This document shows, piece by piece, positions 14,834 to 58,855 of a stretch of DNA of 64,000 nt. This DNA is from Caballeronia sp. Lep1P3 (lineage in GTDB: Bacteria; Pseudomonadota; Gammaproteobacteria; Burkholderiales; Burkholderiaceae), in NCBI RefSeq assembly GCF_022879595.1, contig NZ_CP084266.1:1178001-1242000 (forward strand), written 5' to 3'. Made by a program: the position numbers and the translations under genes. The stretch's first letter is position 1. Every line of letters begins with the position of its first letter. The notes below the pieces were generated by a model. It had not been told where the DNA came from, ran no database searches, and saw only the letters and a program-made list of their open reading frames with translations.

Positions 14834-15207
14834 GTCTCCTCCAGAATGGTGATGCCTCCGACCCAGGAATGACCACGCTACCGGTTGCATCGCGCGCGCC
14901 TTCTCAATGCGGGTAACGATCTTTTCGCTTTGCCCGGTCCATAGCCGGGCGCTTGCGTATCGACGCCGATTGCATATTCCATGCCGGTTTCGCGTGCGCT
15001 CGCGCGCATTGCGACACGCGCGTGAAAGCGCGTTTTCCGTCCGGCGTAGTGGCTTTGTCGCGATACATACTGTGTCAAATACAGTGCGTGTTGCTGGGAC
15101 AAGGGTTCGGCCTTCACTGCTTGACGCGGCGCAGCAGCGGACTTTTTGGCTTGCGGCTCGTGCTGCGCGCATACTTGACGCTTGACGTATCTCTTGAGGA
15201 CTCTGTC
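14834..15207. promoter_or_regulatory. Divergent control region of xoxF and dcoH
   Basis: These 374 bases hold no convincing gene. A sequence with GG and GC at -24/-12 spacing toward xoxF lies at 14986-14972 (minus). An inverted repeat actgt-7-acagt lies at 15069-15085 and contains a perfect TTGACA on the minus strand at 15078-15073, without a good -10. An imperfect tgttgc-t-gggaca lies at 15089-15101. These are the likely sites of activators. Confidence 0.5.
14972..14986 (-). promoter_or_regulatory. Possible sigma-54 (-24/-12) promoter of xoxF
   Basis: On the minus strand the 15-mer is CGGCATGgaatATGC, with the invariant GG and GC at the correct 10-base gap. It differs from TGGCACG-N4-TTGC at three positions. 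It would give a leader of about 125 bases before the xoxF ATG. Moderate match only. Confidence 0.35.
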
Positions 15208-15591
15208 ATGGCTCAAGCAGAAAAAGTCTATTCGGACGATGAGGTTCAGCAGCGTCTGAACGGTCCGCTCAAGCACTGGTATCTCGAAGATGGGTGGCTT
15301 CGGCGCAAGTTCAGAACCGAAGGCTGGAAAGGCACGCTCATGGTCGTGAATACCGTTGGGCATCTGGCCGAGGCAGCCTGGCATCATCCGGATCTCACCG
15401 TCTCTTATGCGTTCGTTGTCGTCAAGCTCAAGACGCATTCGGCTAAAGGAATCACCGATAAGGATTTCGCGCTTGCTTCCAAGATCGAAGAGGTCGTTCA
15501 GTGGCAGCCGGGGGTTGAGGGTGGTCCTCTTCAGGGGACGCCTTCCGATGATCAGCGGTTTAGGTATGTCAAGTACGACCGCCTTTCTTAG
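15208..15591 (+). CDS. Pterin-4a-carbinolamine dehydratase (DcoH/PhhB family)
   Basis: A 127-aa protein with the family's substrate motif in GHLAEAAWHHPDLTVSYAFVVVKL (about residues 50-75, HHP catalytic region) and the usual length plus a short C-terminal extension. The classical enzyme dehydrates 4a-hydroxytetrahydrobiopterin. Members of this family sit beside H4MPT genes in methylotrophs, so here a role on a methanopterin intermediate is more likely than phenylalanine metabolism, as no phenylalanine hydroxylase is nearby. It is divergent from xoxF and is closed by a palindromic repeat starting at the base after its stop. Confidence 0.85.
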   Translation: MAQAEKVYSDDEVQQRLNGPLKHWYLEDGWLRRKFRTEGWKGTLMVVNTVGHLAEAAWHHPDLTVSYAFVVVKLKTHSAKGITDKDFALASKIEEVVQWQPGVEGGPLQGTPSDDQRFRYVKYDRLS

Positions 15592-15676
15592 GGTGCTTAT
15601 TTTTCGTGTCGGTCTATTGGCGTTGCCCCTATGCGGGGCGGGGCAACAGCAATAGACCGACACGAAACTAAGCACC
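15592..15676. repeat. Palindromic intergenic repeat (short form)
   Basis: Two arms of about 37 bases (15592-15629 and 15640-15676) are inverted around a 10-base loop. The outer sequence (gtgcttag-type end, then ggtctattggcgttgcccc) is the same as the ends of the large element at 41.5-43.5 kb. It begins directly after the dcoH stop and probably acts as its terminator. I recall this family as frequent in Paraburkholderia-type genomes; copy number cannot be measured here. Confidence 0.85.
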
Positions 15677-15692
15677 GAAACAAAAAGCAGAT

Positions 15693-15707
15693 TGGTACAC
15701 CTCTTGC
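15693..15707 (+). promoter_or_regulatory. Possible sigma-54 promoter of the mptG operon
   Basis: The 15-mer TGGTACAcctcTTGC has the invariant GG and GC at the right spacing and a perfect -12 element; the -24 element differs from TGGCACG at two positions. It ends 43 bases before the mptG ATG. Confidence 0.45.
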
Positions 15708-15750
15708 CTAAAGCAAAAACCCAAGCCCCCGGCAGGAAAAAGAACCACCA

Positions 15751-16779
15751 ATGACCGCCCCCACGCGTCTATCCCCCCCGGCGATCACGATCGCAGCCTC
15801 AGCCCGGCTGCATCTCGGCTTCATCGATCCGAACGCTTCGCTCGGCCGCGCCTTCGGTAGCGTGGGCCTCGTCATCGATGCACACGCCACGCGCATCACC
15901 GCGCGTCGCTCGCAGCACGAGGCGCACATAGAAGGCGCAGCAAGCCCGGCCCAGCACGACCGCATCCAAGCGTCTCTCAAGCAACTGCACGCAGCGCTCA
16001 ACGTCTCGCATCCCGTCGACATAGACGTGCACGAAACGCCCCGCCCGCATACGGGCCTCGGCTCCGGCACGCAACTCGCCCTCGCGCTCGGCACTGCGTT
16101 CGCGCGTCTCACCGGCCACGACATCGGCACCGCGGACATCGCCCGCATACTCGGCCGCGGCGCGCGCTCCGGCATCGGCATTCACGGCTTCGAACACGGC
16201 GGACTGATCGTCGATGGCGGACGCAGCGTCGCCCGGACGAACGCGGCCACGCTGCCGCCCATGCTCGCGCGCCAGCCGTTTCCCGATGCGTGGCGCGTCC
16301 TGCTCATCGACGACACGTCGCGCGTAGGCCTGCACGGCGATGCCGAAAAACGCAGCCTGGCCGCACTCGCGCCCTTCCCCGCGACGCTCGCCGCGCACCT
16401 CTCGCATCTCGTGCTCATGCGTATCCTGCCCGCCGTCGCGGAAAGCGATTTCGATACCTTCGCCGACGCCATCTCCGACATGCAGCAGACCATCGGCGAA
16501 TACTTCGCGCCCGTGCAGGGCGGCGTGTTCGCGAGTCCCGCCGTCGCGCGCGCGCTCGAAGCCGTCGCCGCCGAGCAGAAGGCCGGCATCGGGCAGACGT
16601 CGTGGGGACCGGTCGGCTTCGCGTTCGTTCGAAGCGCACAGCACGCGGAGCGCGCGCTCGCAGCCGCTAAGCGCGCATCGCGGCAGGCGCCGCTCGCGTT
16701 CACCATCGCCGCCGCCCGCAATCGTGGCGCGACGTGGCATACAGCCGCCCGCCGGCAGCACGATGCGGATGCCGCCTGA
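15751..16779 (+). CDS. mptG: Beta-ribofuranosylaminobenzene 5'-phosphate synthase (H4MPT synthesis)
   Basis: A 342-aa GHMP-kinase-fold enzyme. It shows ARLHLGFIDPN near residue 18, HTGLGSGTQLALALG near residue 98 (the GHMP glycine-rich loop) and GRGARSGIGIHGFEHGG near residue 135. It condenses 4-aminobenzoate (or 4-hydroxybenzoate in archaea) with PRPP, releasing CO2, the first committed step of methanopterin assembly. AGGA lies about 13 bases upstream. It opens the run mptG-mtdB-ATP-grasp-mch-mptN-like-citG-like. Confidence 0.93.
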   Translation: MTAPTRLSPPAITIAASARLHLGFIDPNASLGRAFGSVGLVIDAHATRITARRSQHEAHIEGAASPAQHDRIQASLKQLHAALNVSHPVDIDVHETPRPHTGLGSGTQLALALGTAFARLTGHDIGTADIARILGRGARSGIGIHGFEHGGLIVDGGRSVARTNAATLPPMLARQPFPDAWRVLLIDDTSRVGLHGDAEKRSLAALAPFPATLAAHLSHLVLMRILPAVAESDFDTFADAISDMQQTIGEYFAPVQGGVFASPAVARALEAVAAEQKAGIGQTSWGPVGFAFVRSAQHAERALAAAKRASRQAPLAFTIAAARNRGATWHTAARRQHDADAA

Positions 16780-16824: not shown

Positions 16825-17754
16825 ATGCCCGAAGCGACCGAAAGACCGTACGTGCTGCACATGTTCACGAGCACGCCGCAGATGAGTCCATTCGATGTGA
16901 ACATGGCGGCGGATGCCGGCTATCAGATCCTCGTGCCGTATTGCAATGTCGACGAAGCGAGCGTCGTGCAACTCACGCAGGACGCGATCTTCTCGCGCGG
17001 GCCGAAGGGCGTCTCGCGCACCGGCATCTTCATCGGCGGACGCGACGTGATGCTCGCCGCCGACATGCTAGAACGCGCGCGCAACGCGATGGTGCCGCCC
17101 TTCGAGGTCTCCGTGTTCGCCGACCCGAGCGGCGCTTACACGACAGCCGCCGCGCTCGTCGCGCTCGCGGAAAAGCATCTGAAGGCCGGGCACAGCGTCG
17201 GGCTGGACGGCAAGCGCCTCTTGATCCTCGGCGGCACCGGCGCGGTCGGGCGCGTGGCGGCGGCGATGGCCGCATCGCTCGGTGCGGACGTCGCCGTCGC
17301 GAGCCATTCGAGCCAGTCGCGCGCCACGCAAGTGAGCGACGAGATCAACCGGCGCTTCGATATCGCCACGAGCGGCGTCGCGACCGGCGCGCCCGAGCAA
17401 CTGCATCGCGAACTCGCGCGCGCGGAGATCGTCTTCGCCACCGCCGTCGCCGGCGTTCAGGTGATGAGCGCCGCCGACCTCGCGCACGCGAAGCACATGT
17501 TGATCGCCGCCGATGTCAACGCCGTGCCGCCCGAAGGCATCGCGGGCGTCAACGTGATGGACGACGGCAAGCCGCTCGCCGGCGCGCCGCGCGCGGACGC
17601 CATCGGCATCGGCGCGCTCGCCATCGGCAACGTGAAGTATCAGGCGGAGCATCGGCTCTTCGTGCGGATGCGAACCGGCGGCAAGCCCGTGTATCTCGGC
17701 TTTCCCGAAGCCTTCGACGAAGCGCGCGCCATCGTCGCGGGACAAGGCTCATGA
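16825..17754 (+). CDS. mtdB: MtdB, NAD(P)-dependent methylene-H4MPT dehydrogenase
   Basis: A 309-aa cytoplasmic enzyme. The N-terminal catalytic domain begins HMFTSTPQMSPFDVNMAADAGY, and the Rossmann nucleotide loop is LLILGGTGAVGRVAA near residues 132-146. It oxidises methylene-H4MPT to methenyl-H4MPT, the step after Fae. The MtdA paralogue that also uses tetrahydrofolate is not seen in the window. The stop overlaps the next ATG. Confidence 0.95.
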   Translation: MPEATERPYVLHMFTSTPQMSPFDVNMAADAGYQILVPYCNVDEASVVQLTQDAIFSRGPKGVSRTGIFIGGRDVMLAADMLERARNAMVPPFEVSVFADPSGAYTTAAALVALAEKHLKAGHSVGLDGKRLLILGGTGAVGRVAAAMAASLGADVAVASHSSQSRATQVSDEINRRFDIATSGVATGAPEQLHRELARAEIVFATAVAGVQVMSAADLAHAKHMLIAADVNAVPPEGIAGVNVMDDGKPLAGAPRADAIGIGALAIGNVKYQAEHRLFVRMRTGGKPVYLGFPEAFDEARAIVAGQGS

Positions 17755-18914
17755 TGCTGCACGACGCCGCGCGTGCGCCCCGCGTCGCGGTTGCGGGACT
17801 GTCCGCGCGTCTGCTCGCGCAATCGGCGGCGCGCGCGGGCCTCAACGTGGTCGCGCTCGACATCTTCGGCGACCGCGATACGCGCGCGCATGCGGGCATG
17901 TGGTTCGATATCGGCGGCGACGGTCTCTCCATCGATCGCGCGCGTCTTTACGATGCGCTGGAGCGAGCCGCGCGCCTGCCGCGCATGCTGGGCCTCATCG
18001 TGACGAGCGGACTGGAGCCGCTCGCCATCGAGCTGAGCCGCGCGCCGCGCGTGCCGCGTTTCATCGGCAACGGCGCGCAATCGGCAAGCGTGCGCGATCC
18101 GCGACGCTTCTTCGCGTTGCTCGACGAAGCGCATGTCGCGCATCCGGACGTGCGTTTCTCCGCGCCCGCCGATGCGAGCGGCTGGCTCGTCAAGCGCTCC
18201 GATGGCTGCGGCGGCACGCATATCGAACGGGCGGAGGACATCGGCAATATGCCTTCCGATGCCTATTTCCAGCGTCTTTCGCACGGCCGTTCGATGTCGG
18301 CGCTCTTCATCGGCGCGCGGCGCGAGGCGGCGGTCATCGGTTTCGCGGAACAGCTCACGGTGGCAGCGGGCCATCTTCCATTCGTGCACGCGGGTTCGCT
18401 CGGCCCCGTCATGTTGCCGCGCGATACGGCCGCGCGCATCGTCGCCGCCATCGAAACGATCGTGTGGCAAACGGATCTCGCGGGACTCAACAGCATCGAC
18501 TTCCTGCTCGACGACGACACGTTCCAGGTGCTCGAAATCAACACGCGCCCTTCCTCGACGATGGCCCTTTACGAAGCTGCATGGCCGAACGCGTGGCCGC
18601 ACGGCCTGATCGGGGCGCATCTCGAAGCGTGTCTCGACGGCGAGTTGCCGCGCGCGAACACGGCCCTCATGCGGCCGCCGTTGATCGCGGGACAGCGCGT
18701 GGTTTTCGCGCCGCGAAGTTTCACCGTATCGGGCGCGTTCAGCGACGCCTGTTTCGACGATTCCGCATGCCATGACGTGCCGCTATCGGGCGCGCGCATC
18801 GAGGCGGGCATGCCCGTTTGCACGATGACCGCCGCCGCATCCGAACTGGATGCATTGCGCATCGAACTCGACGCGCAATGCACGCGCGTTCTGCAACGCA
18901 TGGACACTCTCTGA
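17751..18914 (+). CDS. ATP-grasp protein of the H4MPT cluster
   Basis: A 387-aa protein. An N-terminal preATP-grasp domain (VAVAGLSARLLAQSAARAG) is followed by an ATP-grasp fold with SGWLVKRSDGCGGTHI near residue 143 and the metal-binding QVLEINTRPSS near residue 260. Such genes are conserved in bacterial H4MPT clusters and required for the pathway in some methylotrophs, but the reaction is unsettled. Ligation of an amino acid or phosphate-containing group to a pterin or furan intermediate is likely. It overlaps mtdB by 4 bases and precedes mch by 3. Confidence 0.8.
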   Translation: MMLHDAARAPRVAVAGLSARLLAQSAARAGLNVVALDIFGDRDTRAHAGMWFDIGGDGLSIDRARLYDALERAARLPRMLGLIVTSGLEPLAIELSRAPRVPRFIGNGAQSASVRDPRRFFALLDEAHVAHPDVRFSAPADASGWLVKRSDGCGGTHIERAEDIGNMPSDAYFQRLSHGRSMSALFIGARREAAVIGFAEQLTVAAGHLPFVHAGSLGPVMLPRDTAARIVAAIETIVWQTDLAGLNSIDFLLDDDTFQVLEINTRPSSTMALYEAAWPNAWPHGLIGAHLEACLDGELPRANTALMRPPLIAGQRVVFAPRSFTVSGAFSDACFDDSACHDVPLSGARIEAGMPVCTMTAAASELDALRIELDAQCTRVLQRMDTL

Positions 18915-18917
18915 GTC

Positions 18918-19928
18918 ATGACGACATCCTCTCCTTTGCCCGCTGCGCTGAGCGTCAACGCGATGAGCGCGCCGCTCGTCGCGCAGTTGATCGAGCATCA
19001 CGAACGGCTTCGCGTGGATGTCACGCGCACGGCGGGCGGCACGATCATCGTCGATGCCGGCGTGAACGCGGCGGGCAGCGTCGATGCGGGCGTGCTGATC
19101 GCGCGCATCTGCATGGGCGGGCTCGGGCATGTGACGCGCCGCGCCGCCTTCGATTCCGACCCGCTATGGCCGACGTTCATCGAAGTGCACACGTCCCATC
19201 CAGTGCTTGCATGCCTCGGCAGTCAGTACGCGGGCTGGAGCCTTTCGGCCACGAAGGAGCAGACCGGCGGCAAGAAGTTCTTCTCGCTCGGCTCGGGACC
19301 GGCGCGCGCACTCGCGGGCAAGGAACCGCTCTTCGACGAACTCGGCTATCGCGATCGCCATGATCGCGGCGCGCTCGTGATGGAAGTGGACCGGCTGCCG
19401 CCGCAAGTCGTCATCGACAAAGTACTCGCCGATTGCGGCCTCGCGCCGGAGAATCTCGTGATCGCCGTGACGCCGACACACTCTGTCGCGGGCACGGTGC
19501 AGGTCGTGGCGCGCGTCGTCGAAGTTGCGCTGCACAAGACGCATGTGCTGGGCGTCGATCTTTCGGAGATCGTCGACGCAAGCGGCAGCGCGCCGCTGCC
19601 GCCGCCCGCGCCCGATGGCATCGCCGCAATGGGCCGCACGAACGACGCGATTCTTTACGGCGGCCGCGTGCATCTCACCGTGAAAAGCGATGCAGCCGCG
19701 AAGCGCCTTGCCGCCGAACTGCCGTCGCTGAATGCGCGCGATTACGGGCAACCTTTCGCGGACATCTTCAAGTCGTTTAACTACGACTTCTATCAGATCG
19801 ATGCCGCGCTTTTCGCGCCCGCCGAAGCATGGGTGTCGAGCCTCGAAAGCGGCGCGACGCATCGCGGCGGCAAGCTCAATCGCGCGCTCATCGGCGCGCA
19901 ATGGCACGTCACGCAAGAGACGCCATGA
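18918..19928 (+). CDS. mch: Mch, methenyl-H4MPT cyclohydrolase
   Basis: A 336-aa enzyme. Characteristic stretches are GGTIIVDAGVNAAGSVDAG near residue 42, FFSLGSGPARALAGKE near residue 120 and GRTNDAILYGGRVHLTV near residue 240. It converts methenyl-H4MPT to formyl-H4MPT for the Fhc complex. Its stop overlaps the next ATG, within a tightly packed operon. Confidence 0.96.
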   Translation: MTTSSPLPAALSVNAMSAPLVAQLIEHHERLRVDVTRTAGGTIIVDAGVNAAGSVDAGVLIARICMGGLGHVTRRAAFDSDPLWPTFIEVHTSHPVLACLGSQYAGWSLSATKEQTGGKKFFSLGSGPARALAGKEPLFDELGYRDRHDRGALVMEVDRLPPQVVIDKVLADCGLAPENLVIAVTPTHSVAGTVQVVARVVEVALHKTHVLGVDLSEIVDASGSAPLPPPAPDGIAAMGRTNDAILYGGRVHLTVKSDAAAKRLAAELPSLNARDYGQPFADIFKSFNYDFYQIDAALFAPAEAWVSSLESGATHRGGKLNRALIGAQWHVTQETP

Positions 19929-20848
19929 CACGCATCGCGATCATGACCGACGAGACCGGCTGGCACACCGGCCGTCTGAAGAAAGCGTTCCGCGCGCGCG
20001 GCGTGGACGCGCGTTGCGTCGATCTGGCGGACTGCCGCATCGACACGACATGGGCGCCGCATGGCCTCGCGATTCCCGGCTTCGGACACGCGCTGCCCGA
20101 TGCGGTTTTCGTGCGCGGCATCGCGGGCGGCACGTTCGAGCAAGTGACGCTGCGGCTCGGCATCCTGCATGCGCTGCGCGAATGCGGCGTGCCGGTCTAT
20201 AACGATGCACGCGCCATCGAGCGCAGCGTCGACAAGTCGATGACGAGCTTCCTGCTCAACCGATACGGCGTGCCGACGCCCGCGACGTGGACCTGCGAAT
20301 CGGCCGCGTTCGCGCAGCGCGTCTTGATGCGCGAAGCGGCGGCGGGCCGCAAGGTCGTGATGAAGCCGCTCTTCGGATCGCAAGGGAAGGGCCTTGAGCG
20401 CCCCGATATCGCGTTGCCATCGCTCGCCGGATTCAACGAAGTGGCTTATTTGCAGCGCTATATCGATGCGGGCAGCCCCGGCTTCGACTGGCGCGTGCTC
20501 GTGATCGGCAACGAAGCGGTCGCGGCGATGAAGCGCGTGGGCGGCGATGGCTGGATTCACAACTTCGCGCGCGGCGCGCGCTGCGAGCCGGCCGAACTCA
20601 CGCCCGCACTCGCCGATACCGCCGTGCGCGCGAGCAACGCGCTCGGCCTCGATTACGCGGGCGTCGATCTGATCGCATGCGATGAGCGTCCGCTCGTGCT
20701 CGAAGTGAACGGCGTCGCGGCATGGCGCGGCTTGCAATCGGTGACGCCGCTCGATATCGCGGCGCGCCTCGTCGACGATCTGCTCGATCGCAAACTCGCT
20801 GCAACGCAACGCAAGCTCGCGCTTGCCAGCGGCGATGCAAGCGCCTGA
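19925..20848 (+). CDS. RimK/MptN-like alpha-L-glutamate ligase (ATP-grasp)
   Basis: A 307-aa ATP-grasp enzyme. It contains RSVDKSMTSFLLNRYGVPTPATW near residue 100-120, KVVMKPLFGSQGKG near residue 140 and VLEVNGVAAWRGLQ near residue 258. In archaea MptN adds glutamate to tetrahydromethanopterin to give sarcinapterin, and by position this gene is a good candidate for tailoring the bacterial cofactor or for polyglutamylation of the methanofuran analogue. The choice between these is inference. Confidence 0.8.
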   Translation: MTRIAIMTDETGWHTGRLKKAFRARGVDARCVDLADCRIDTTWAPHGLAIPGFGHALPDAVFVRGIAGGTFEQVTLRLGILHALRECGVPVYNDARAIERSVDKSMTSFLLNRYGVPTPATWTCESAAFAQRVLMREAAAGRKVVMKPLFGSQGKGLERPDIALPSLAGFNEVAYLQRYIDAGSPGFDWRVLVIGNEAVAAMKRVGGDGWIHNFARGARCEPAELTPALADTAVRASNALGLDYAGVDLIACDERPLVLEVNGVAAWRGLQSVTPLDIAARLVDDLLDRKLAATQRKLALASGDASA

Positions 20849-21680
20849 CGCGCGCCGCGCGTTCCTGCGCGCATGCTGCCTTGACGTCGAGACGAAGAAG
20901 CCGGGCAACGTGAGCGTCGCGAGCGCGGGGCATGGCATGAGCGCCGCGCAGTTCATCGCAAGCGCGGAGACGGCGGCAGCGGGCCTCTTTACGCCGCGCG
21001 CGAGCGTCGGCGCGCGCATTCTCGATGCCGTGCGCCGCACTTCCGATGCCGTCGGCTGCAACACGAATCTCGGCATCGTGCTGCTGGCCGCGCCGTTGTG
21101 CGTGGCGCTCGAAACGCTCGCTACCGATGCGACCCATGCAAAACACTGGCACGCCGCCACGCAAAGCGTGCTTGCCTCACTCGACATCGACGATGCGCGC
21201 CTCGCCTATCGTGCGATCGCGCTTGCGAATCCCGGCGGCCTCGGCGACGCGCCCGAGCAGTCCGTTCATGCGCCGCCGACCGTCGGCCTGCGCGCCGCGA
21301 TGACGCTCGCCGCGGACCGCGACAGCATCGCGCGGCAATACGCGAACGGCTTCGCGGATGTCTTCGAAGCGGCGCAAGCCCTAAGCGTCGCCGATGAACA
21401 AACCGCCATGCTCGATGCGTTCCTCGCGTTTCTCTCGCGCTGGCCGGATTCGCACATAGTGCGCAAGCACGGCGCGGCGATGGCGCAAAGTGTCACGCGC
21501 GATGCCGCCGCGCATCGCGCACGCTGGCTCGCGAACGGCCGTCGCGCGGATACGGCCGAACTCGACGCGTGGGACGCGCATCTGAAGATGCGCGGCATCA
21601 ACCCCGGCACGAGCGCGGACCTCGCGGTGGCGACGCTCTTCGTCGCGCTCATGACCTCGCGTGTGCACGATGACGCATGA
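20835..21680 (+). CDS. CitG-like (triphosphoribosyl-dephospho-CoA synthase fold) protein of H4MPT cluster
   Basis: A 281-aa all-helical protein of the CitG/MdcB family with the nucleotide-binding segments LDVETKKPGNVS near residue 16 and GCNTNLGIVLLAAPL near residue 73. Bacterial H4MPT clusters regularly contain such a gene, presumably transferring a phosphoribosyl-type group during cofactor assembly; no citrate or malonate lyase gene is nearby. The ATG at 20835 overlaps the previous gene by 14 bases; a TTG at 20823 is an alternative. Confidence 0.75.
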   Translation: MQAPDARRAFLRACCLDVETKKPGNVSVASAGHGMSAAQFIASAETAAAGLFTPRASVGARILDAVRRTSDAVGCNTNLGIVLLAAPLCVALETLATDATHAKHWHAATQSVLASLDIDDARLAYRAIALANPGGLGDAPEQSVHAPPTVGLRAAMTLAADRDSIARQYANGFADVFEAAQALSVADEQTAMLDAFLAFLSRWPDSHIVRKHGAAMAQSVTRDAAAHRARWLANGRRADTAELDAWDAHLKMRGINPGTSADLAVATLFVALMTSRVHDDA

Positions 21681-21683
21681 GAT

Positions 21684-21698
21684 TGGCACGGAACATGT
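21684..21698 (+). promoter_or_regulatory. Weak sigma-54-like site upstream of fae
   Basis: TGGCACG is a perfect -24 element, but the -12 position reads ATGT instead of TTGC. It lies 134 bases before fae, directly after the citG-like stop. Recorded because other C1 operons show better sites; low confidence. Confidence 0.2.
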
Positions 21699-21831
21699 TT
21701 AGGACGTGCGCGGTCATGCAGCCCTCATGCGCGCTCTTGTCGACTTGGGGGTATCGAGCGTTGCCGCCGCGAGTGCAAGGCAAGTGCAAAGCAGGTCGAT
21801 CGTCCCAAGAACCAATCACTGGAGGAACAGC

Positions 21832-22341
21832 ATGGCCAAGATCAACCGCGTCCTGATAGGAGAGTCGCTCGTCGGCGATGGCAACGAGGTTGCGCACATC
21901 GACTTGATCATCGGACCGCGAGGTTCGGCTGCGGAGACCGCGTTCTGTCACGCGCTCACGAATAACAAGGACGGCTTCACGTCGCTGCTCGCCGTGGTCG
22001 CGCCCAATCTCATCACGAAGCCCAACACGATTCTCTTCAACAAGGTCACGATCAAGGGCGCGAAGCAGGCGGTGCAGATGTTCGGTCCGGCACAGCACGC
22101 GGTGGCGCTTGCGGTAGCCGACAGCGTGGAGGACGGCACCATTCCCGCCGACGAAGCCGACGATCTCTTCATCTGCGTGGGCGTATTCATCCACTGGGAA
22201 GCGTCCGACGACAAGAAGATTCAGGAGTTCAACTATCAGGCCACGAAGGAATCGATCAAGCGCGCGGTGGCCGGCGAGCCGAAGGCGTCGGAAGTGGTGT
22301 CGAGAAAATCACAGGTCGCGCATCCGTTCGCGGCTGCCTGA
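21832..22341 (+). CDS. fae: Fae, formaldehyde-activating enzyme
   Basis: A 169-aa enzyme that condenses formaldehyde with H4MPT to methylene-H4MPT. The catalytic His of the [17 protein letters not shown] segment is near residue 22, and [14 protein letters not shown] is seen near residue 64. GGAGG ends six bases before the ATG, a very strong ribosome site fitting an abundant protein. It has its own 150-base leader and is followed by a strong hairpin. Confidence 0.97.
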
Positions 22342-22359
22342 GTAAAACGTCATGCCCGC

Positions 22360-22396
22360 AAAGGCCGGCGCATCGCAACGTCGCGCGCCGGCCTTT
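22360..22396 (+). terminator. Terminator after fae
   Basis: A perfect 12-base stem, aaaggccggcgc and its complement, has a 13-base loop and ends in TTT. It lies 18 bases after the fae stop and 30 bases before the next ATG. Confidence 0.8.
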
Positions 22397-23302: not shown

Positions 23303-23636
23303 GTGCGTGTCGCCGCGCGAGCGGCCCCCGTTGAAGTGATGACGTGCAGCGCAAAACAAGCGCAAGAGACAAGCAAAAACCGCGCGCAAGGCCGGGCCTC
23401 TATGCGACTACTTATTGAACCGGCGCGTCTTAGGATGTAGAGTTTTTGGAGCCGGACGGGACGGAGCAGGTAACAACGCCCTGATCTACGTAGAAACCCG
23501 GCCCGAGGCGCGCGAAGCGTGCAGTGGCACGACTGCATCATGACAGCCGCAGCGCCAGCGGAACTCACAACGGATTCGGCGTCGGATGGCCGCGCTTGCC
23601 GCGAACATCACGCTAACGCCACGGAGACACGCCCTC
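23303..23636. other. Intergenic region between folB-like and sigma-54 activator genes
   Basis: No gene is supported in these 334 bases, which separate divergent genes. I see no strong palindrome or -24/-12 site. The sequence around 23405-23450 is locally AT-richer (tacttattgaac and gtagagtttttgg) and is the likeliest promoter area. Confidence 0.4.
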
Positions 23637-25670
23637 ATGTCGTCGCTCGCTGACGTAGACACGCATGTCCGGGAAGTGCTGAACATCGTCAATAACCCGC
23701 TGGCCTCGCGGCGCGCGAGCGATTCCGTCGCCCAGTCGTGGATGCGCTGCCTCACCGAATTCCATCTCGATCCGGGCCGCTTCGTCATGCCGCCCGTGCT
23801 CACGCAGCGCGAACTCACCGAGCGCCGCGAAGCCGCGAGCGATCTCATCGCGTGTTCGAAGCTCGAAATGACGACGCTTTATCAGCAACTCGCGGACCCT
23901 GAACTCGCGGTCGTGCTCGTCGATGCCGACGGCGTGATCGTGCATCAGGTGTCGTCGGTGCCGTTCGGCGAAGCCGTCGCCGCCGATGGCCTGCGCGTCG
24001 GCGCGCTATGGAGCGAACGCGAAGCCGGCACCAACGGCATGGGGACGTGTCTCGTGGAGCGCGACTGCATCGCCGTATGTCAGCACGAGCATTTCTATCC
24101 GCGCTATACGTCGCTCACCTGTTCGGCCGCGCCCATCTTCGACGAACGCGGCGCAGTGGTCGGCGTGCTCGATGTGACGAGCCGCTCGAAGCTCTTGCAG
24201 CAGCACTCGCTGGTGCTTGTCGGCATGTCGCGGCAGATGATCGAAAATCGTCTGATCGATGCGCGGTATCGGCACGCGAACATGATTCACTTTCATAGCC
24301 GGCCCGAGTTCGTCGGCACGTTGCATGCCGGCAAGCTCGCCGTCAGCGATGAAGGCGTCGTGCTCGCCGCGAGCCGCAGCGCGCTCTTTCAACTCGACCT
24401 GCGCTCGCCTTCGGAGCTATGCGGCAAGCGCATCGAAGAGGCGTTCAATGCGTCGCTGGAAGACATGATCGCGCGCAGCATTCGCGGCTCGTTTCACCCG
24501 GTGACGGTCTATAGCGCGAAGGCGAACAGCCGCTTCTTTCTCACGGCGCAAACGCCGCGCGAAGCGTCGAATGGCGCGACGCGCATTCTCATGAACGATT
24601 CCGCGCTCAGCACGCGTTCGAGGGCCACGCGCAAGGAAGCGCGCGACGACGCAGGCGCGGGCCGTCTGGACAAGCTCGCGCATCTGGAGTTCGGCGACCC
24701 GCGCATGGCCTCGCAGATTCAGCTTGCCGCGCGCGTGATTCAACGCAAGATTCCGATCATTCTTCGCGGACAAACCGGCACCGGCAAGGAAGTGTTTGCG
24801 AATGCGCTGCATAGCATCAGCCCGAACGGAACCGGTGCGTTCGTCGCGGTGAATTGCGCTTCGCTGCCGGAGAATCTCATCGAGAGCGAGTTGTTCGGTT
24901 ATCGCGCAGGCGCGTTCACCGGCGCGCAGCGCGAAGGACGTCGCGGCAAGATCGTGCAGGCGAACGGCGGCACGCTTTTCCTCGATGAAATAGGCGACAT
25001 GCCGCTTGCGCTTCAGGCGCGCCTTTTACGCGTCCTCGAAGAACACGAGGTCACGCCGCTCGGCGCGGAAACTACTGTAAAAGTGGACTTTCAGTTGATC
25101 TCGGCGAGCCACCGCAATCTCGCGGAACTCGTGCAGACCGGCATGTTTCGCGAGGACCTCTACTACCGGCTCAATGGCATCGAGATCAATCTGCCGCCGT
25201 TGCGCGAACGCGCCGATGCGCTTGCGCTCATCGGCCATATCCTCGAAACGGAATCCGCCGATCCGCCCGCATTGAGCGTGGAAGCGCGGCAAGCGCTGCT
25301 GAGCTATCCGTGGCCCGGCAACATCCGGCAATTGCGGCATGTGCTGCAAATGGCGATCGCACTGTGCGACGGCCCCGAGATACGCTGCGCGCATCTGCCG
25401 CCCGACATCGTGAGCGGCGCGCGTGCGCCCGCTGCGGCGAGCGCGCCCGCCGCGCCGCTCACGCATCTCACCGACGATGCGATCACGCCCGCGCTCAACG
25501 CGATTCAGGCGCGCGAGCGCGAGACCGTGCTGCTTCTACTCGACGAACATCGCTGGAACGTGAGCAATGTCGCGAAGGTGCTCGGCATCAGCCGCAATAC
25601 GCTGTATCGCAAGATGCATCGTCTGCATATCAGGCTGTCGCACGATTCCGCCGCGCCGCACGACGCATGA
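23637..25670 (+). CDS. Sigma-54-dependent transcriptional activator, AcoR type
   Basis: A 677-aa bacterial enhancer-binding protein. A GAF-type sensor occupies about residues 70-200 (EAGTNGMGTCLVE). A central AAA+ domain has Walker A GQTGTGKE at 378-385, the sigma-54 contact loop GAFTGA at 425-430 and Walker B TLFLDEIGDM. A Fis-type helix-turn-helix lies at the C-terminus (NVSNVAKVLGISRNTLYRKM). The ATG at 23637 follows a GGAG; an earlier start adds 17 residues. It lies in the H4MPT block and is coupled to the flavoprotein by ATGA. It is the obvious candidate to act at the -24/-12 sites found here. Confidence 0.9.
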   Translation: MSSLADVDTHVREVLNIVNNPLASRRASDSVAQSWMRCLTEFHLDPGRFVMPPVLTQRELTERREAASDLIACSKLEMTTLYQQLADPELAVVLVDADGVIVHQVSSVPFGEAVAADGLRVGALWSEREAGTNGMGTCLVERDCIAVCQHEHFYPRYTSLTCSAAPIFDERGAVVGVLDVTSRSKLLQQHSLVLVGMSRQMIENRLIDARYRHANMIHFHSRPEFVGTLHAGKLAVSDEGVVLAASRSALFQLDLRSPSELCGKRIEEAFNASLEDMIARSIRGSFHPVTVYSAKANSRFFLTAQTPREASNGATRILMNDSALSTRSRATRKEARDDAGAGRLDKLAHLEFGDPRMASQIQLAARVIQRKIPIILRGQTGTGKEVFANALHSISPNGTGAFVAVNCASLPENLIESELFGYRAGAFTGAQREGRRGKIVQANGGTLFLDEIGDMPLALQARLLRVLEEHEVTPLGAETTVKVDFQLISASHRNLAELVQTGMFREDLYYRLNGIEINLPPLRERADALALIGHILETESADPPALSVEARQALLSYPWPGNIRQLRHVLQMAIALCDGPEIRCAHLPPDIVSGARAPAAASAPAAPLTHLTDDAITPALNAIQARERETVLLLLDEHRWNVSNVAKVLGISRNTLYRKMHRLHIRLSHDSAAPHDA

Positions 25671-36407: not shown

Positions 36408-36484
36408 TTCACCGTCACGCGCGCAGGCGGGACACTTTGCTGCGTTTCCGTCACAGTGCTTGCGTGCGAAGCGTGCCGACGCTT

Positions 36485-36499
36485 TGGCATGGCGCTTGC
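36485..36499 (+). promoter_or_regulatory. Sigma-54 (-24/-12) promoter of pqqA
   Basis: The 15-mer TGGCATGgcgcTTGC, preceded by TT, matches the consensus TGGCACG-N4-TTGC with a single C-to-T change. It lies 92 bases before the pqqA ATG. Confidence 0.7.
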
Positions 36500-36665: not shown

Positions 36666-36680
36666 AGAAGCGCATGCATC

Positions 36681-43365: not shown

Positions 43366-43526
43366 GCCAATGCCCTTCCGCAAGCTGCACACGCACTCTC
43401 TGCTGCGGGCTAAAAAGCTGCTTTCTTTGGTTACTTTCTTTGCAGCAGCAAAGAAAGTGACTGCCGCCCCGCACAGGGGCAACGCCAATAGACCGCCACG
43501 AAAACTAAGCACCAAAACAAAAACCG
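43366..43526. repeat. Target duplication copy and outer part of the right arm
   Basis: Bases 43366-43373 repeat gccaatgc. Bases 43374-43526 continue the right arm, including its own hairpin (actttctttgc, loop agca, complement) and the outer end shared with the 15.6 kb repeat. Joining 90 and 153 bases gives a 243-base arm, equal to the 242-base left arm. Confidence 0.85.
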
Positions 43527-43539
43527 GCATACACATTGC
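43525..43539 (+). promoter_or_regulatory. Possible sigma-54 promoter of fhcBADC
   Basis: CGGCATAcacaTTGC has GG and GC at the right spacing and a perfect -12 element; the -24 element differs at three positions. It begins at the last bases of the repeat arm and ends 46 bases before the fhcB start. Confidence 0.4.
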
Positions 43540-46542: not shown

Positions 46543-47489
46543 CCGTCATGCGCATCAACGGTACGCAAATCGACGATACCTTCGCCGAAGCCTTCCCGAT
46601 GAAGGCGACGCGTCTCGTCATCACCGCGCATACGCCGGTATGGGCGCGTCACGCGGCCAATTCGTTGACGGGCTTTGCAACCTCCGTGATCGACTGCGGA
46701 TGCGAAGCGGGCATCGAGCGCGATCTCGCAGGCGACGAAACGCCCGATGGACGGCCGGGCGTATCGGTGCTGATGTTCGCGGTGTCGTCGAAAGAGCTTG
46801 CAAAACAGATCGCGCGGCGCGTCGGGCAATGCGTGCTGACGTGTCCGACAACGGCCGTCTATGGCGGCATCGATCGTGCAACGAGCCGCGCGCCGCTTTC
46901 CGACAACGCCCCGCTCGGCGCGGGCTTGCGCTTCTTCGGCGACGGCTTTCAGATATCGAAAGTGCTCGGTGCCACGCGCTATTGGCGCGTGCCGGTCATG
47001 GACGGCGAATTCGTCTGCGAAGAGTTCACGGCCACGGTCAAGGCCGTGGGCGGTGGCAATCTGCTTTTTCTCGCAAGCGACGTGGACAGCGCGCTAGCCG
47101 CCGCCGAAGCAGCCGTCGATGCCATGCATGCGCTGCCGAACGTCATTACGCCGTTTCCCGGCGGCGTCGTGCGTTCAGGCTCCAAGATAGGCTCCAAATA
47201 CGCGGGCGCGACTGCATCCACGAACGATGCGTTTTGCCCGACGCTCGTCGGCTTGTCGAGTAAGAGCGAATTGACGCCCGAAGTCGCGTGCGTACTCGAA
47301 ATCGTGATCGACGGTCTCACGGATGCGGACGTGAGCGCCGCGATGACAGCGGGCATTGCGGCGGCGACATCGTTGGGACATGCACGCGGCGTCCTTCGCA
47401 TTTCGGCGGGAAACTACGGCGGCAAGCTCGGGCCTTATCACTTCAGGTTGCATGAGTTGGCGGCGGGCATCGCGGGGAGCGGCGCATGA
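46539..47489 (+). CDS. fhcD: FhcD, formylmethanofuran:H4MPT formyltransferase
   Basis: A 316-aa protein homologous to archaeal Ftr, with INGTQIDDTFAEAFPMK at the N-terminus, CPTTAVYGGID near residue 100, ITPFPGGVVRSGSKIGSKY near residue 205 and a C-terminal GNYGGKLGPYHFRLHEL. It transfers the formyl group from formyl-H4MPT to the methanofuran analogue. The ATG at 46539 overlaps the fhcA stop. Confidence 0.96.
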   Translation: MTVMRINGTQIDDTFAEAFPMKATRLVITAHTPVWARHAANSLTGFATSVIDCGCEAGIERDLAGDETPDGRPGVSVLMFAVSSKELAKQIARRVGQCVLTCPTTAVYGGIDRATSRAPLSDNAPLGAGLRFFGDGFQISKVLGATRYWRVPVMDGEFVCEEFTATVKAVGGGNLLFLASDVDSALAAAEAAVDAMHALPNVITPFPGGVVRSGSKIGSKYAGATASTNDAFCPTLVGLSSKSELTPEVACVLEIVIDGLTDADVSAAMTAGIAAATSLGHARGVLRISAGNYGGKLGPYHFRLHELAAGIAGSGA

Positions 47490-48307
47490 ACGCCATTACG
47501 TTGCGCGTAAAAAATGCGCCAGGCTTTCGCGTCGATGCGTCGAAATTACTGCCTCACGCTCTAGCGGAGTTGTCGCTTGAGGCATTGGCGCGCCTCACGT
47601 TGCAAGGGCATGGCGAGACATGCGCGTTAGGCGATGTATTCGACATCGCGCAAGCGGATGCACAAGCGCCGTCGCTTGTCATCGAGGGCGACGCGCGATG
47701 GCTGGATCGGCTGGGCGCGTCGATGAGCGAAGGCACGCTCACCATCCACGGCGATGCGGGCGATTGCGCTGGCATCGGCATGACAGGCGGCGTCCTCGCG
47801 ATACAAGGGAATGCCGGCGATTTCGTCGCTTGCGAGATGCAAGGCGGCCGCGTAACGGTGCACGGCAACGTCGGGGACTTTGCAGCGGGCGCGCTTCCCG
47901 GCGACATGGAAGGCATGAACGGCGGCGTGCTTGCGGTGCACGGCAGCGCTGGCGCGCGTCTTGCAGATCGCATGCGGCGCGGCACCGTGATGATCGGCGG
48001 CGATGCGGGCGACTTCGCGGCATCGCGGCTCATTGCGGGCACCGTATGCATCGCGGGACACACGGGCGCGCGCGTCGGCTATGGCATGCGGCGCGGCACG
48101 GTCGTACTATTGAACGCGCCACCCCGCATGGAGCCGACATTCACCGAAGGCAAACGCGGTTTCGACGTCTTCTGGCTTCTACTCACGCGCATGCTCGCCC
48201 GCGAACGCGCGCCGTTTGCGACGCTCGACGGCAAAGCTTTACCGAGGCGCTATGCGGGCGATCTCGCCGTGGACGGACGGGGGGAATTGCTTATCGCCAA
48301 TTCATGA
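47486..48307 (+). CDS. fhcC: FhcC, formyltransferase/hydrolase complex subunit C
   Basis: A 273-aa protein with the beta-helix repeats of FwdC/GltB-C type: repeated G-x-hydrophobic-x-GxxG(D/N)-A units such as IHGDAGDCAGIGMTGG, VHGNVGDFAAGALPGDMEGMNGG and IGGDAGDFAASRL between residues 75 and 205. It is the scaffold subunit of the Fhc complex and the last gene of fhcBADC. Confidence 0.94.
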   Translation: MNAITLRVKNAPGFRVDASKLLPHALAELSLEALARLTLQGHGETCALGDVFDIAQADAQAPSLVIEGDARWLDRLGASMSEGTLTIHGDAGDCAGIGMTGGVLAIQGNAGDFVACEMQGGRVTVHGNVGDFAAGALPGDMEGMNGGVLAVHGSAGARLADRMRRGTVMIGGDAGDFAASRLIAGTVCIAGHTGARVGYGMRRGTVVLLNAPPRMEPTFTEGKRGFDVFWLLLTRMLARERAPFATLDGKALPRRYAGDLAVDGRGELLIANS

Positions 48308-56826: not shown

Positions 56827-56947
56827 GTTTTTCCTCGCCGGCGAGCCTACCTGATACTAGCAGCCGCTAACGACGCCACGCGAGGTCGAATGCGCAATGA
56901 CGCGCCGCAAAAAACGAAATGGCCGTGCGCGTCCGAGGGTCAGTGTG

Positions 56948-58027
56948 TCAGCGTCCCACGATCGACCCCGCGCTCGGCGGATACGTGACGATGCCCCACG
57001 CAAGCGGCAAGTCGCCGATCTGCTTCACGGTTTGATAGGTCGAACCGTCCAGCACATAGACCGCATTCGAGCGGCCGCATGCAAGCAGCAGCTTCGTGCC
57101 GTCCGGCGTGAAGCTGAAATGCCAGCAGCGCTGTCCCATCGGCACATCGCTTATATGCTCATAGGTCGAGCCGTCGAAGACCTGCAGCGTCTTGTCGCGC
57201 GATGCGGCCACGAGCAAACGCTTGCCCGAAGGATCGAATGAAACGCCGTAGGGACCGGCTTTGGTATCGACGGTCTTGACGGTCTTGAGATCGTCTCCTT
57301 CGAGCACGATGAACTTATTGGCGTTCTCGAGGGTGACGACATATTGCTTGCCGTCCGGCGTTGCCTTGATGCCGCGCGGGCGCGACCCCTTCGGCAGATT
57401 CACCGTGCGTACCGGCTTGCCCGTGCCGACGCGATACACGGAGACCGTGTCGTCTCCCTCGTTCGTGACCAGAATCAGCTTGCCGTCCGGCGAAAACTCG
57501 ACGCCCTCCGTTTCGTGGCCGCTCTTGACGGAATGCGTGACTCTCATCGTCTTGAGATCGACGATAGCGATTTCGGCCGGCGGTGAGTTGGCGTCGTCGT
57601 CCTTTTCCGGTTCGCCCGCCTTGGGCGGCCCGCCCGATTCGCCGGGTTCGTAGGTGACGTAGGCGTAAGTGCCCAGCACGCGCACGAATTCCGGGTTCTT
57701 GCCGATCTTTGCGCGCTTGATCACCTTGCCAGAGGACGTATCGATTTCCGATAGATCGCCCGTCGATTTATTCGCGACGTAAAGGCGCGTGCCGTCCTTG
57801 TTGAGGCTAAGGCCGCGCGGTCCGTCCTTGCCGACATCGAAAGTCTTCGCGAGCGCAAGATTGCCGAGATCGATCACGCCGATCCCCGCGGTTTCGCTCG
57901 TCACATAGGCCGTTTGTGTGGCCGTTTGCGCTTGCGTCGCGGCCTGCGCGTGGCTTGCCGCCAGCAACACGATTGGCGTTGCGAAGGACGCGCATGCAAG
58001 GCGCGCCGCATTGATGCTGACTTGCAT
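56948..58027 (-). CDS. Exported YVTN-type beta-propeller, PQQ-dependent catabolism-associated
   Basis: A 359-aa periplasmic protein with signal peptide to about residue 29 (SHAQA). It has at least six repeats of the type TPDGK-x-(L/Y)V-x-x near residues 74, 170, 213, 257, 299 and 311. It matches the beta-propeller family associated with PQQ-dependent alcohol catabolism. A linker PPKAGEPEKDDDANSPPA interrupts the propeller near residue 135. The role is unknown; protein binding is usual for the fold. Confidence 0.85.
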   Translation of the reverse strand: MQVSINAARLACASFATPIVLLAASHAQAATQAQTATQTAYVTSETAGIGVIDLGNLALAKTFDVGKDGPRGLSLNKDGTRLYVANKSTGDLSEIDTSSGKVIKRAKIGKNPEFVRVLGTYAYVTYEPGESGGPPKAGEPEKDDDANSPPAEIAIVDLKTMRVTHSVKSGHETEGVEFSPDGKLILVTNEGDDTVSVYRVGTGKPVRTVNLPKGSRPRGIKATPDGKQYVVTLENANKFIVLEGDDLKTVKTVDTKAGPYGVSFDPSGKRLLVAASRDKTLQVFDGSTYEHISDVPMGQRCWHFSFTPDGTKLLLACGRSNAVYVLDGSTYQTVKQIGDLPLAWGIVTYPPSAGSIVGR

Positions 58028-58157
58028 GAGTCGTCTCCCGCTAAACGTTTTTTGTATCGTTCTCGAGTCTGCCCCAGAAGGCAACTTAGCTCAGGAAACG
58101 CCGCGCGCGCAACGTCGGGAAGAGGGAGAAATTCCCGAATTGTGCAAGGGCCGTGTC

Positions 58158-58691
58158 CTAGCGCAAAGCGGATGCCTCGCTTCCCAGCAGATCGATTAGC
58201 GCTTTAGCGCCGCGCCGCCACGATTCGTCGGTATTGCCGCGCATATCGACGGAACGCTGAAAGAGCGTCGTGCCGTTGCTCGCGTCTTCCACACGCAGAT
58301 TGATGTTCAGGATGAGATTGCTGATCTTCTGCACCCAGCACACGCCGACGCGCGTCGCGCCGAGCTCACGCGCCACGCGCAATTCACAGCCATTGCACGC
58401 GTTGATGTCTTGCGCACTTTCGAGCGATGCGACGAGTTTGCTTACCTTCGAATTATTGGCGACGTCAAAGAGCGCGCGATCGCGCACGTCCTTGCGCAGC
58501 GCCTCGCTCACCATCGCAAGGCGTTCGCTCTGGATGCGGTTGATTTGCGCGTCGTTATAGGCGGCGTTGTCATCGATGAGCGTGCAATCCAGCAAGGCGA
58601 TGGACTGTTGCGCGCCTTGCGCCTTCGCGTAACCGCTGCAAAGAGCGATGACGACGATGGCTACGCTCAATACACGAACGATGCATGTCAT
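58158..58691 (-). CDS. Exported DUF2380-like protein
   Basis: A 177-aa protein with a signal peptide ending near residue 25 (GYAKAQ). The mature part has SIALLDCTLIDDNAAYNDAQINRIQSERLAMV, read in parts, and paired cysteines in INACNGCELRVARELGATRVGVCWVQK around residues 98-120. It resembles DUF2380 proteins that recur beside PQQ alcohol dehydrogenase genes. It lies 130 bases upstream of the propeller gene on the same strand, so the two may be cotranscribed. Confidence 0.72.
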   Translation of the reverse strand: MTCIVRVLSVAIVVIALCSGYAKAQGAQQSIALLDCTLIDDNAAYNDAQINRIQSERLAMVSEALRKDVRDRALFDVANNSKVSKLVASLESAQDINACNGCELRVARELGATRVGVCWVQKISNLILNINLRVEDASNGTTLFQRSVDMRGNTDESWRRGAKALIDLLGSEASALR

Positions 58692-58840
58692 GAGTGCGTT
58701 CCCCGATGAACAAGTCTTGGCCGCTGCGCCAACACCAGGTGCATGAGTTGTCTGCGCGCATCCAACATAACGTGACGCGCCGCTTCGAGCAAGACGCGCG
58801 CAGGCACGCTGCGTATGCGGAAAGCGCGCGCGCCGCGCAC

Positions 58841-58855
58841 TGGCATAGCCCTTGC
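58841..58855 (+). promoter_or_regulatory. Sigma-54 (-24/-12) promoter upstream of the small GG peptide
   Basis: TGGCATAgcccTTGC, followed by AAA, has perfect GG/GC spacing and a perfect -12 element; the -24 element differs from TGGCACG in two positions. It ends 61 bases before the peptide ATG. It is the closest in form to the pqqA promoter. Confidence 0.65.

What the first reader, a model, noticed from the sequence alone, without database searches (positions are those of the whole stretch)
14972..58855. A putative sigma-54 regulon spanning PQQ, H4MPT, Fhc, XoxF and a small peptide
Sequences with GG-N10-GC spacing precede pqqA (36485), the small GG peptide (58841), mptG (15693), fhcB (43525) and, more weakly, xoxF (14986-14972, minus). 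The first two match TGGCAY-N5-TTGC very well. An AcoR-type enhancer-binding protein with an intact GAFTGA loop lies inside the H4MPT block. I know of no established model in which sigma-54 controls PQQ precursor and H4MPT genes together.
Basis: partly seen in the sequence, partly recalled or inferred. Interest (0 to 1): 0.8.

Follow-up and report, generated by a model that had tools for sequence, protein, structure and literature searches.

The report
Sigma-54 switch for methanol-oxidation genes
In this soil bacterium and its relatives, the genes for oxidising methanol and formaldehyde, including the precursor of the cofactor PQQ, carry conserved promoters of the sigma-54 type beside a matching activator gene, which points to one on/off control that can be tested directly.

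Summary
Within 300 bp upstream, a sense sigma-54 site is found for xoxF in 39/39 loci, mptG 38/38, pqqA 46/46, fhcB 46/46 and the GG peptide 23/23. Shuffles give 2-8%; control genes 0-8%, except fae (15/36, a -24-like block of its own). Sites are conserved, flanks are not. The GAF-AAA-Fis activator gene and xoxF share 52 of 299 genomes (54 and 55 have each). A palindrome lies upstream of xoxF in all 39 loci with xoxF; perfect copies of its class also precede fhcB (14/46) and dcoH (11/37), and 0 of 191 control regions. One genome without the activator kept xoxF but lost the -24 GG and the palindrome. In print, fhcA of the orthologous Paraburkholderia phymatum island has log2FC -3.5 in an rpoN mutant. 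So sigma-54 control of XoxF, H4MPT, Fhc and pqqA is likely. A shared activator is likely for xoxF and fhc, plausible for mptG, unresolved for pqqA (different conserved upstream block) and doubtful for the GG peptide, which does have a true sigma-54 promoter.

The parts
14972..14986 (-). sigma-54 -24/-12 site of xoxF (CGGCATGGAATATGC), about 150 bp upstream of the start codon
   Evidence: present in 36 of 36 loci with xoxF and dcoH, 39 of 39 with xoxF; GG lost in G277
15061..15077 (-). palindromic enhancer-like element TGACACAGTATGTATCG (UAS candidate), between xoxF and dcoH
   Evidence: at most 2 of 12 arm mismatches in all 39 loci with xoxF; in the own genome one further hit, with 2 mismatches
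13025..14833 (-). xoxF, lanthanide-type PQQ methanol dehydrogenase
   Evidence: best PDB match 6dam XoxF; HDEWDYDG as in 6dam
15208..15591 (+). dcoH-like pterin-4a-carbinolamine dehydratase; own sigma-54 site only in part of the relatives, not in the window
   Evidence: 13 of 37 loci
15693..15707 (+). sigma-54 site of mptG (TGGTACACCTCTTGC)
   Evidence: 38 of 38 loci although the spacer to dcoH varies from 88 to 1005 bp
15751..16779 (+). mptG (beta-RFAP synthase), first gene of the H4MPT block
16825..22341 (+). H4MPT block: mtdB-like, an unnamed gene, mch, mptN-like, citG-like, fae
21684..21698 (+). -24-like conserved block upstream of fae (TGGCACGGAACATGT); -12 reads GT, not GC
   Evidence: lead only
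23586..25670 (+). GAF-AAA(sigma54)-Fis activator (enhancer-binding protein), Walker A residue 395, GAFTGA residue 442
   Evidence: co-occurrence
36429..36457 (+). conserved block upstream of pqqA, GGGACACTTTGCTGCGTTTCCGTCACAGT (different from the xoxF/fhcB palindrome)
   Evidence: unique in own genome at up to 3 mismatches
36485..36499 (+). sigma-54 site of pqqA (TGGCATGGCGCTTGC)
   Evidence: 46 of 46 loci with a recognised pqqA (of 50 loci; for the other 4)
36591..36665 (+). pqqA ([24 protein letters not shown]), directly upstream of DUF447 and mfnB
43525..43539 (+). sigma-54 site of fhcB (CGGCATACACATTGC)
   Evidence: 46 of 46, plus the 4 dropped loci on re-anchoring
43586..48307 (+). fhcB, fhcA, fhcD, fhcC
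   Evidence: fhcA of the orthologous island is RpoN-dependent in P. phymatum
58841..58855 (+). sigma-54 site of the GG peptide (TGGCATAGCCCTTGC)
   Evidence: 23 of 23; the one dropped locus
58867..58884 (+). short inverted repeat CGAGCAT-CGTC-ATGCTCG between the promoter and the GG peptide, of a kind seen in the 16 aligned loci
58917..59126 (+). double-glycine-leader-like small peptide

Best explanation
This Caballeronia replicon carries a sigma-54 regulon for methanol and formaldehyde oxidation. RNA polymerase with sigma-54 sits closed at -24/-12 sites in front of xoxF, mptG (H4MPT block), pqqA-DUF447-mfnB and fhcBADC. The GAF-AAA-Fis activator encoded in the island binds the palindrome GACACA-N3-TGTGTC between xoxF and dcoH, and in relatives also upstream of fhcB. 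When its GAF domain senses a C1 signal (methanol, formaldehyde or a product), it opens these promoters by ATP hydrolysis through the GAFTGA loop. Shown here by computation: sites, conservation, activator architecture, co-occurrence, palindromes. Shown in print for a relative: RpoN dependence of fhcA. Inferred: that this activator binds the palindrome, that it acts on mptG and pqqA, the operon limits, and what it senses.
For: Sense sites scoring at least 21 of 26 in the 300 bp upstream: xoxF 39/39, mptG 38/38, pqqA 46/46, fhcB 46/46, GG 23/23; shuffles 2-8%; control genes: activator 2/42, folB 0/37, unknown gene at 22352 3/39, dhps 2/37, fae 15/36. Mean pairwise identity 0.74-0.93 in the site against 0.29-0.45 in the 40 bp on each side. 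Activator, mch and xoxF are in 54, 53 and 55 of 299 genomes; activator with mch 51, with xoxF 52, and they are syntenic. Palindrome upstream of xoxF in 39 of 39 loci with xoxF. Perfect RCACANNNTGTGY: xoxF 21/39, dcoH 11/37, fhcB 14/46; mptG, pqqA, GG and the five control sets none. G277, without activator and mch, keeps intact xoxF but its site reads CTCACATGGAATATGC and the palindrome is gone. Two rpoN genes. Second pqqA of the own genome, outside the island: best score 16. Azoarcus KH32C (another order) has sites at mptG and its methanol dehydrogenase; Cupriavidus oxalaticus at fhcB. P. phymatum fhcA (Bphy_6505) log2FC -3.5 in rpoN-mutant nodules (PMC5979394, section 29 read); locus tags fit the orthologous island (RuBisCO is Bphy_6497; gene order).
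Against: No transcription start is mapped. pqqA has a different conserved upstream block, and mptG and the window's own fhcB have no nearby palindrome, so one activator for all is not shown. One-mismatch palindromes also turn up at control genes (fae 24/36, activator 3/42, gene at 22352 4/39, dhps 1/37), so only perfect copies carry weight. fae has only a -24-like block with GT at -12. The xoxF site contains a GCAT-N5-ATGC inverted repeat with a conserved spacer, so an added or other factor is possible. RpoN dependence of fhcA was measured in Fix- nodules and may be indirect. Single scores of 21 or more also occur at other genes: in Azoarcus at the activator and DUF6513 (4 of 17 genes in all), in Cupriavidus at mch, mfnF and mfnD but not at mptG. 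P. phymatum dcoH has no site of 21.
Confidence: 0.8

Rival explanations
1. The promoters are sigma-54 dependent but under several activators: the island's activator drives xoxF, dcoH and fhc (palindrome GACACA-N3-TGTGTC), while pqqA and the GG peptide answer to other activators that recognise their own upstream blocks.
For: pqqA block GGRACACTTTGCTGYGTTTYCGYSACAGT and GG-peptide block YCCAACATA differ from the palindrome; no perfect palindrome at pqqA (0/46) or GG (0/23). The own genome has 13 strong sigma-54 activator genes. In 8 of the 18 GG-peptide loci mapped the peptide lies beside other GG peptides, a kinase-like and a caspase-like gene rather than the C1 island (names from my reading of the sequences).
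Against: pqqA heads a DUF447-mfnB segment linked to the island in most relatives, and its site travels with it.
Confidence: 0.5
2. The conserved motif at xoxF is the binding site of another regulator (GCAT-GGAAT-ATGC half-sites) that happens to fit GG-N10-GC.
For: Spacer bases between -24 and -12 are unusually conserved at xoxF, and the core is an imperfect inverted repeat.
Against: The other promoters share the sigma-54 positions with it, not the spacer (pooled frequencies); the fae block shares GGCAYGGAAYATG in part of the loci but is not palindromic; the activator-less genome lost exactly the -24 GG.
Confidence: 0.1
3. Chance matches in GC-rich intergenic DNA, kept by common descent only.
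For: In the window alone the density of near-matches is barely above shuffles; relatives are not independent; single scores of 21 or more occur at other genes of distant species.
Against: Flanks have diverged to background identity while sites have not; sites persist where spacers were rebuilt by repeats and in other genera; four of five control gene sets of the same loci do not show it.
Confidence: 0.03

Closest known systems
AcoR/DhaR-type sigma-54 activators (GAF - AAA - Fis HTH), e.g. acetoin or dihydroxyacetone regulators
   Same: Domain order, intact Walker A and GAFTGA, adjacency to the presumed target genes; DhaR model matches over residues 40-684
   Different: Far below the DhaR family cut-off (272 against 551 bits); tied to xoxF and H4MPT genes, not to acetoin or glycerol genes; own palindrome
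RpoN regulon of Paraburkholderia phymatum STM815 (PMC5979394)
   Same: Orthologous island with the activator at 78% identity; fhcA RpoN-activated; its motif GGCACG-N4-TTGC is close to the consensus used here
   Different: That paper treats nitrogen fixation and nodules; in the passages and sections 7 and 29 that I read no methanol-oxidation, PQQ or XoxF link is drawn
Sigma-54 control of alcohol or methane oxidation (BmoR, MmoR) - recalled, not looked up
   Same: Sigma-54 plus dedicated activator for a C1/alcohol oxidation system
   Different: There an alkane/methane monooxygenase or alcohol dehydrogenase operon; here XoxF, a pterin C1 pathway, methanofuran cofactor genes and the PQQ precursor
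Known control of XoxF/MxaF methylotrophy (MxbDM, MxcQE, MxaYB, PedS2/R2; recalled, not looked up)
   Same: Same target class
   Different: Two-component systems, no enhancer-binding activator (recalled)

Membership tests
sigma-54 promoter | GG and GC separated by 10 bp in YTGGCAYG-N4-TTGC, upstream and in sense | tested here: met
   GG and GC invariant in the xoxF, mptG, pqqA, fhcB and GG sites. Note: for all but xoxF the best-scoring site was picked, which favours these bases
sigma-54 promoter | RpoN present | tested here: met
   two copies with Sigma54_DBD
sigma-54 promoter | transcription depends on RpoN and starts at +1 of the site | not testable with these tools
   indirect support only for fhcA of P. 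phymatum
sigma-54 promoter | upstream activator site | tested here: inconclusive
   met for xoxF (39 of 39 loci) and for fhcB in part of the relatives; none found at the window's fhcB and mptG; pqqA has a different block
bacterial enhancer-binding protein, GAF/AcoR-like | GAF, Sigma54_activat, AAA lid, HTH_8, GAFTGA, Walker A/B | tested here: met
   GAFTGA in 42 of 42 loci read, strict Walker A pattern in 37 of 42
DhaR (NF008485) | score above the curated cut-off | tested here: not met
   272.1 against 551 bits
XoxF (lanthanide) methanol dehydrogenase | close to solved XoxF; Asp two residues after the catalytic Asp (feature recalled) | tested here: met
   best match 6dam, E 3.9e-268, HDEWDYDG as in 6dam
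PqqA precursor | short peptide with E-x3-Y (recalled) | tested here: met
   [24 protein letters not shown]

The most novel reading that the evidence does not exclude
One C1-sensing sigma-54 activator is the master switch of lanthanide-type methylotrophy in Burkholderiaceae and some other betaproteobacteria: it turns on XoxF, the PQQ precursor with methanofuran-cofactor genes, the H4MPT pathway and Fhc together, so that no methanol is oxidised without a formaldehyde sink, and the promoters are silent otherwise.
Probability: 0.45. Interest if true: 0.8.

Novelty: new member of a known kind. Interest (0 to 1): 0.68.

Why it matters
To my knowledge (recalled) little is known of how XoxF methylotrophy is switched on outside Methylobacterium and methanotrophs. 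A tight sigma-54 switch that couples the dehydrogenase, its cofactor precursor and the formaldehyde sink could explain why such bacteria may look non-methylotrophic until induced. It also gives a ready set of promoters, an activator and a binding site to test. And it offers an explanation for a result in print: RpoN-dependent fhcA in root nodules.

Tried and rejected
Site density in the window as evidence: rejected, near-matches are barely above chance. A site at the activator's own promoter or at folB: none conserved. fae: 15 of 36 upstream regions score 21; 14 of these are one conserved block that has GT instead of GC at -12, so it is not counted. dhps antisense (25 of 37 at 21 or more) comes in most loci from one fixed position next to the dhps start; I tied no minus-strand gene to it. 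The pqqA block as part of the divergent rbcL promoter: rejected, it stays with pqqA in genomes where dhps lies upstream instead (G081, G191). The palindrome as enhancer of mptG, pqqA or the GG peptide: no perfect copy in 38, 46 and 23 loci; one-mismatch hits 1, 0 and 1.

Dropped rows: fhcB, 4 of 50 loci had no anchor and all 4 had a site when re-anchored. GG, 1 of 24 likewise (L227). pqqA, 4 of 50 had no recognised peptide; two of these carry both block and a site, two (G177 and G004, which lack this xoxF) carry neither. In one pqqA locus (L282) the counted best site ties with, and lies apart from, the orthologous one. One search dropped 3 mptG loci and 1 pqqA locus without room for flanks. 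The listing printed at most 45 rows per gene; the counts used here were redone. One search read minus-strand loci in the wrong orientation; corrected. L153 is a truncated contig.
Full report
WHAT THE WINDOW IS. The window is G000:C2:1178001-1242000 of a 6.18 Mb genome in 6 contigs. The closest record in the plasmid collection is Caballeronia sp. M1242 (activator 92% identical). Gene order in the window: cytochrome-like gene and xoxF on the minus strand; a pterin-carbinolamine-dehydratase-like gene (here dcoH, 15208-15591); mptG, mtdB-like, mch, mptN-like, citG-like and fae; folB on the minus strand; the sigma-54 activator; a dihydropteroate-synthase-like gene; RuBisCO and Calvin-cycle genes on the minus strand; pqqA, DUF447 and mfnB; mfnE, mfnF and mfnD on the minus strand; an IS256 transposase; fhcBADC; cytochrome b561; pqqB, C and E; a sensor kinase, a TonB receptor and, at 58917, the GG peptide. 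The Calvin-cycle and DUF447 names are my reading of the ORFs, in line with the annotated Paraburkholderia largidicola record.

OBSERVATION. Counting near-matches in the window is uninformative (156 against 127 in shuffles; GG-N10-GC 966 against 1046). Exact TGGCAY-N5-TTGC occurs 31 times in the genome against 9 for the reversed pattern, two of them in this window. A crude frame test puts many of the 31 inside open frames, so some are chance; three others precede genes I read as urtA, rpoN and acoX. The genome has two rpoN genes and 13 strong sigma-54 activators (four weaker AAA matches, also over the cut-off, were not counted).

CONSERVATION. I took the orthologous loci from up to 53 genomes that hold the activator, plus one named contig (L030). 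Scoring YTGGCAYG-N4-TTGCW with weights (maximum 26) over 300 bp upstream, a sense-strand site of 21 or more is found for xoxF in 39 of 39, mptG 38 of 38, pqqA 46 of 46, fhcB 46 of 46, GG peptide 23 of 23 and dcoH 13 of 37 loci. In shuffles of these six sets it is found in 4.7-7.8%. Control genes of the same loci: activator 2/42, folB 0/37, unknown gene at 22352 3/39, dhps 2/37, fae 15/36. fae carries a conserved block TTGGCACGGAACATGTTAGG whose -12 reads GT; it is a lead, not a count. Mean pairwise identity is 0.74-0.93 in the 17-bp sites but 0.29-0.45 in the 40 bp on either side. The mptG site keeps its form although the spacer to dcoH varies from 88 to 1005 bp. The loci dropped for lack of an anchor were re-read: 4 of 4 fhcB and 1 of 1 GG loci have the site; of 4 pqqA loci 2 do and 2 do not.

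ACTIVATOR. Window 23586-25670 encodes GAF, sigma-54 AAA domain, lid and Fis HTH with Walker A at residue 395 and GAFTGA at 442. A gene matching it at E up to 1e-180 is in 54 of 299 genomes of the family, mch in 53, xoxF in 55. Activator and mch share 51 genomes; activator and xoxF share 52. The three activator genomes without mch (G059, G088, G234) have it near xoxF. The two activator genomes without this xoxF (G004, G177) are the most distant and have it near H4MPT genes. The xoxF genomes without the activator are G277 (xoxF intact), G167 and G242 (stops in xoxF).

A NATURAL LOSS. In G277, which has neither activator nor mch, xoxF is intact and 94% identical. Its promoter reads CTCACATGGAATATGCA where the others have CCGGCATGGAATATGCA or variants that keep GG and GC: the -24 GG is gone and no palindrome is left in the shortened interval. 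This is one genome, but it is the loss that the sigma-54 model predicts. Decaying copies in G242, G167 and G227 still have the xoxF site.

ENHANCER-LIKE ELEMENTS. Between xoxF and the next plus-strand gene all 39 loci with xoxF have TGACACAGTATGTGTC with at most 2 of 12 arm mismatches. In the window it is TGACACAGTATGTATCG at 15061-15077, the only window hit at up to 3 mismatches. Perfect RCACANNNTGTGY within 300 bp upstream of the site is found at xoxF in 21 of 39, dcoH 11 of 37 and fhcB 14 of 46 loci (fhcB with at most one mismatch 21 of 46), and in 0 of 38 mptG, 0 of 46 pqqA, 0 of 23 GG and 0 of 191 control regions. One-mismatch hits do occur in controls, fae above all (24 of 36), so they carry no weight. 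The perfect fhcB copies lie in Paraburkholderia-type genomes and deep Caballeronia branches; the window's own fhcB and mptG lack one. In the window a dispersed repeat ends just upstream of both of these sites, so the spacing may have been rebuilt. pqqA has another block, GGGACACTTTGCTGCGTTTCCGTCACAGT, conserved from the window to P. phymatum and unique in the own genome. The GG peptide has a third kind of upstream region and a small inverted repeat after the promoter. The own genome has a second pqqA at C2:418467 whose 300 bp upstream score at most 16.

OUTSIDE THE SAMPLE. Azoarcus sp. KH32C, from another order, has an activator gene 57% identical between its H4MPT genes (annotated record). 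Its mptG has GTGGCCCGGAGCTTGCT 53 bp upstream and its methanol dehydrogenase ATGGCACGTCGCTTGCG 187 bp upstream. Cupriavidus oxalaticus has CTGGCACACGCTTTGCA upstream of fhcB, but no site of 21 at mptG. Against these, 2 further Azoarcus genes of 17 (the activator, DUF6513) and 3 further Cupriavidus genes of 14 (mch, mfnF, mfnD) also score 21 or more, and neither locus has a perfect palindrome, so these two species are weak support. P. largidicola has sites at xoxF and mptG and, measured from the conserved protein start rather than the annotated one, at fhcB and pqqA.

EXPERIMENT IN PRINT. Paraburkholderia phymatum STM815 carries the orthologous island on pBPHY01 with sites at xoxF, mptG, pqqA and fhcB, a perfect palindrome at fhcB and a 2-mismatch one at xoxF. 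In RNA-seq of nodules made by its rpoN mutant, Bphy_6505, formylmethanofuran dehydrogenase subunit A, has log2FC -3.5 (PMC5979394, section 29 read in full). PMC5748707 (passages only) names Bphy_6497 as RuBisCO and Bphy_6505 and 6506 as fhcA and fhcD, raised in nodules. Seven tags between 6497 and 6505 fit the seven genes between rbcL and fhcA in this island if pqqA has no tag (my count: six, a HisA-like one from the related record). pBPHY01 holds a second fhcA. RpoN dependence in Fix- nodules can be indirect. The table shows only the 93 genes of enriched categories, so absence of xoxF from it says nothing.

NOVELTY. Searching the held open library for xoxF with sigma-54 (whole words, from 2008) gave 2 papers, a Methylacidiphilum and a sulfide-oxidiser study, of which I saw the listing only. 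xoxF with rpoN was tried alone, which failed; one search took both terms among six and listed 25 of 2,869 papers, none with xoxF. One search listed a P. phymatum paper first. In the passages and sections of the P. phymatum papers that I read, no methanol-oxidation link is drawn. Many subscription papers are not in this library, so a prior report cannot be excluded.

VERDICT. Sigma-54 promoters at xoxF, mptG, pqqA, fhcB and the GG peptide: very likely. Control of xoxF and fhc by the island's activator: likely. mptG: plausible. pqqA: open. The GG peptide as part of the C1 regulon: unlikely. The kind (sigma-54 plus dedicated activator) is known; the regulon and its make-up seem new.

Noticed in passing
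58917-59126 and L306-L322: The GG peptide belongs to a family of small double-glycine-leader-like peptides with conserved sigma-54 promoters; in 8 of 18 mapped loci (Paraburkholderia type) it lies next to other GG peptides, a kinase-like and a caspase-like gene. Looks like a separate sigma-54 peptide system.
   Followed up: partly
21684-21698: Block TTGGCACGGAACATGTTAGG upstream of fae is conserved with small changes in the 23 aligned loci, -24-like but with GT at -12.
   Followed up: partly
15602-15686, 41545-41620, 43430-43523: A dispersed repeat ending in CTAAGCACCRAAACAAAAA occurs three times in the window, twice directly upstream of a sigma-54 site (mptG, fhcB).
   Followed up: no
36591-37300: pqqA is separated from pqqBCE and heads a DUF447-mfnB segment; a second pqqA without a sigma-54 site lies at G000:C2:418467.
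   Followed up: partly
22352-22825: A protein without Pfam or NCBIfam match is conserved beside the activator even in the three genomes without mch.
   Followed up: no
42048-43325: IS256-family transposase between the mfn genes and fhcB.
   Followed up: no
L327, L328, L329: Some smaller genomes of the group show decaying copies of the island with stops or split matches in xoxF, mch or the activator.
   Followed up: no
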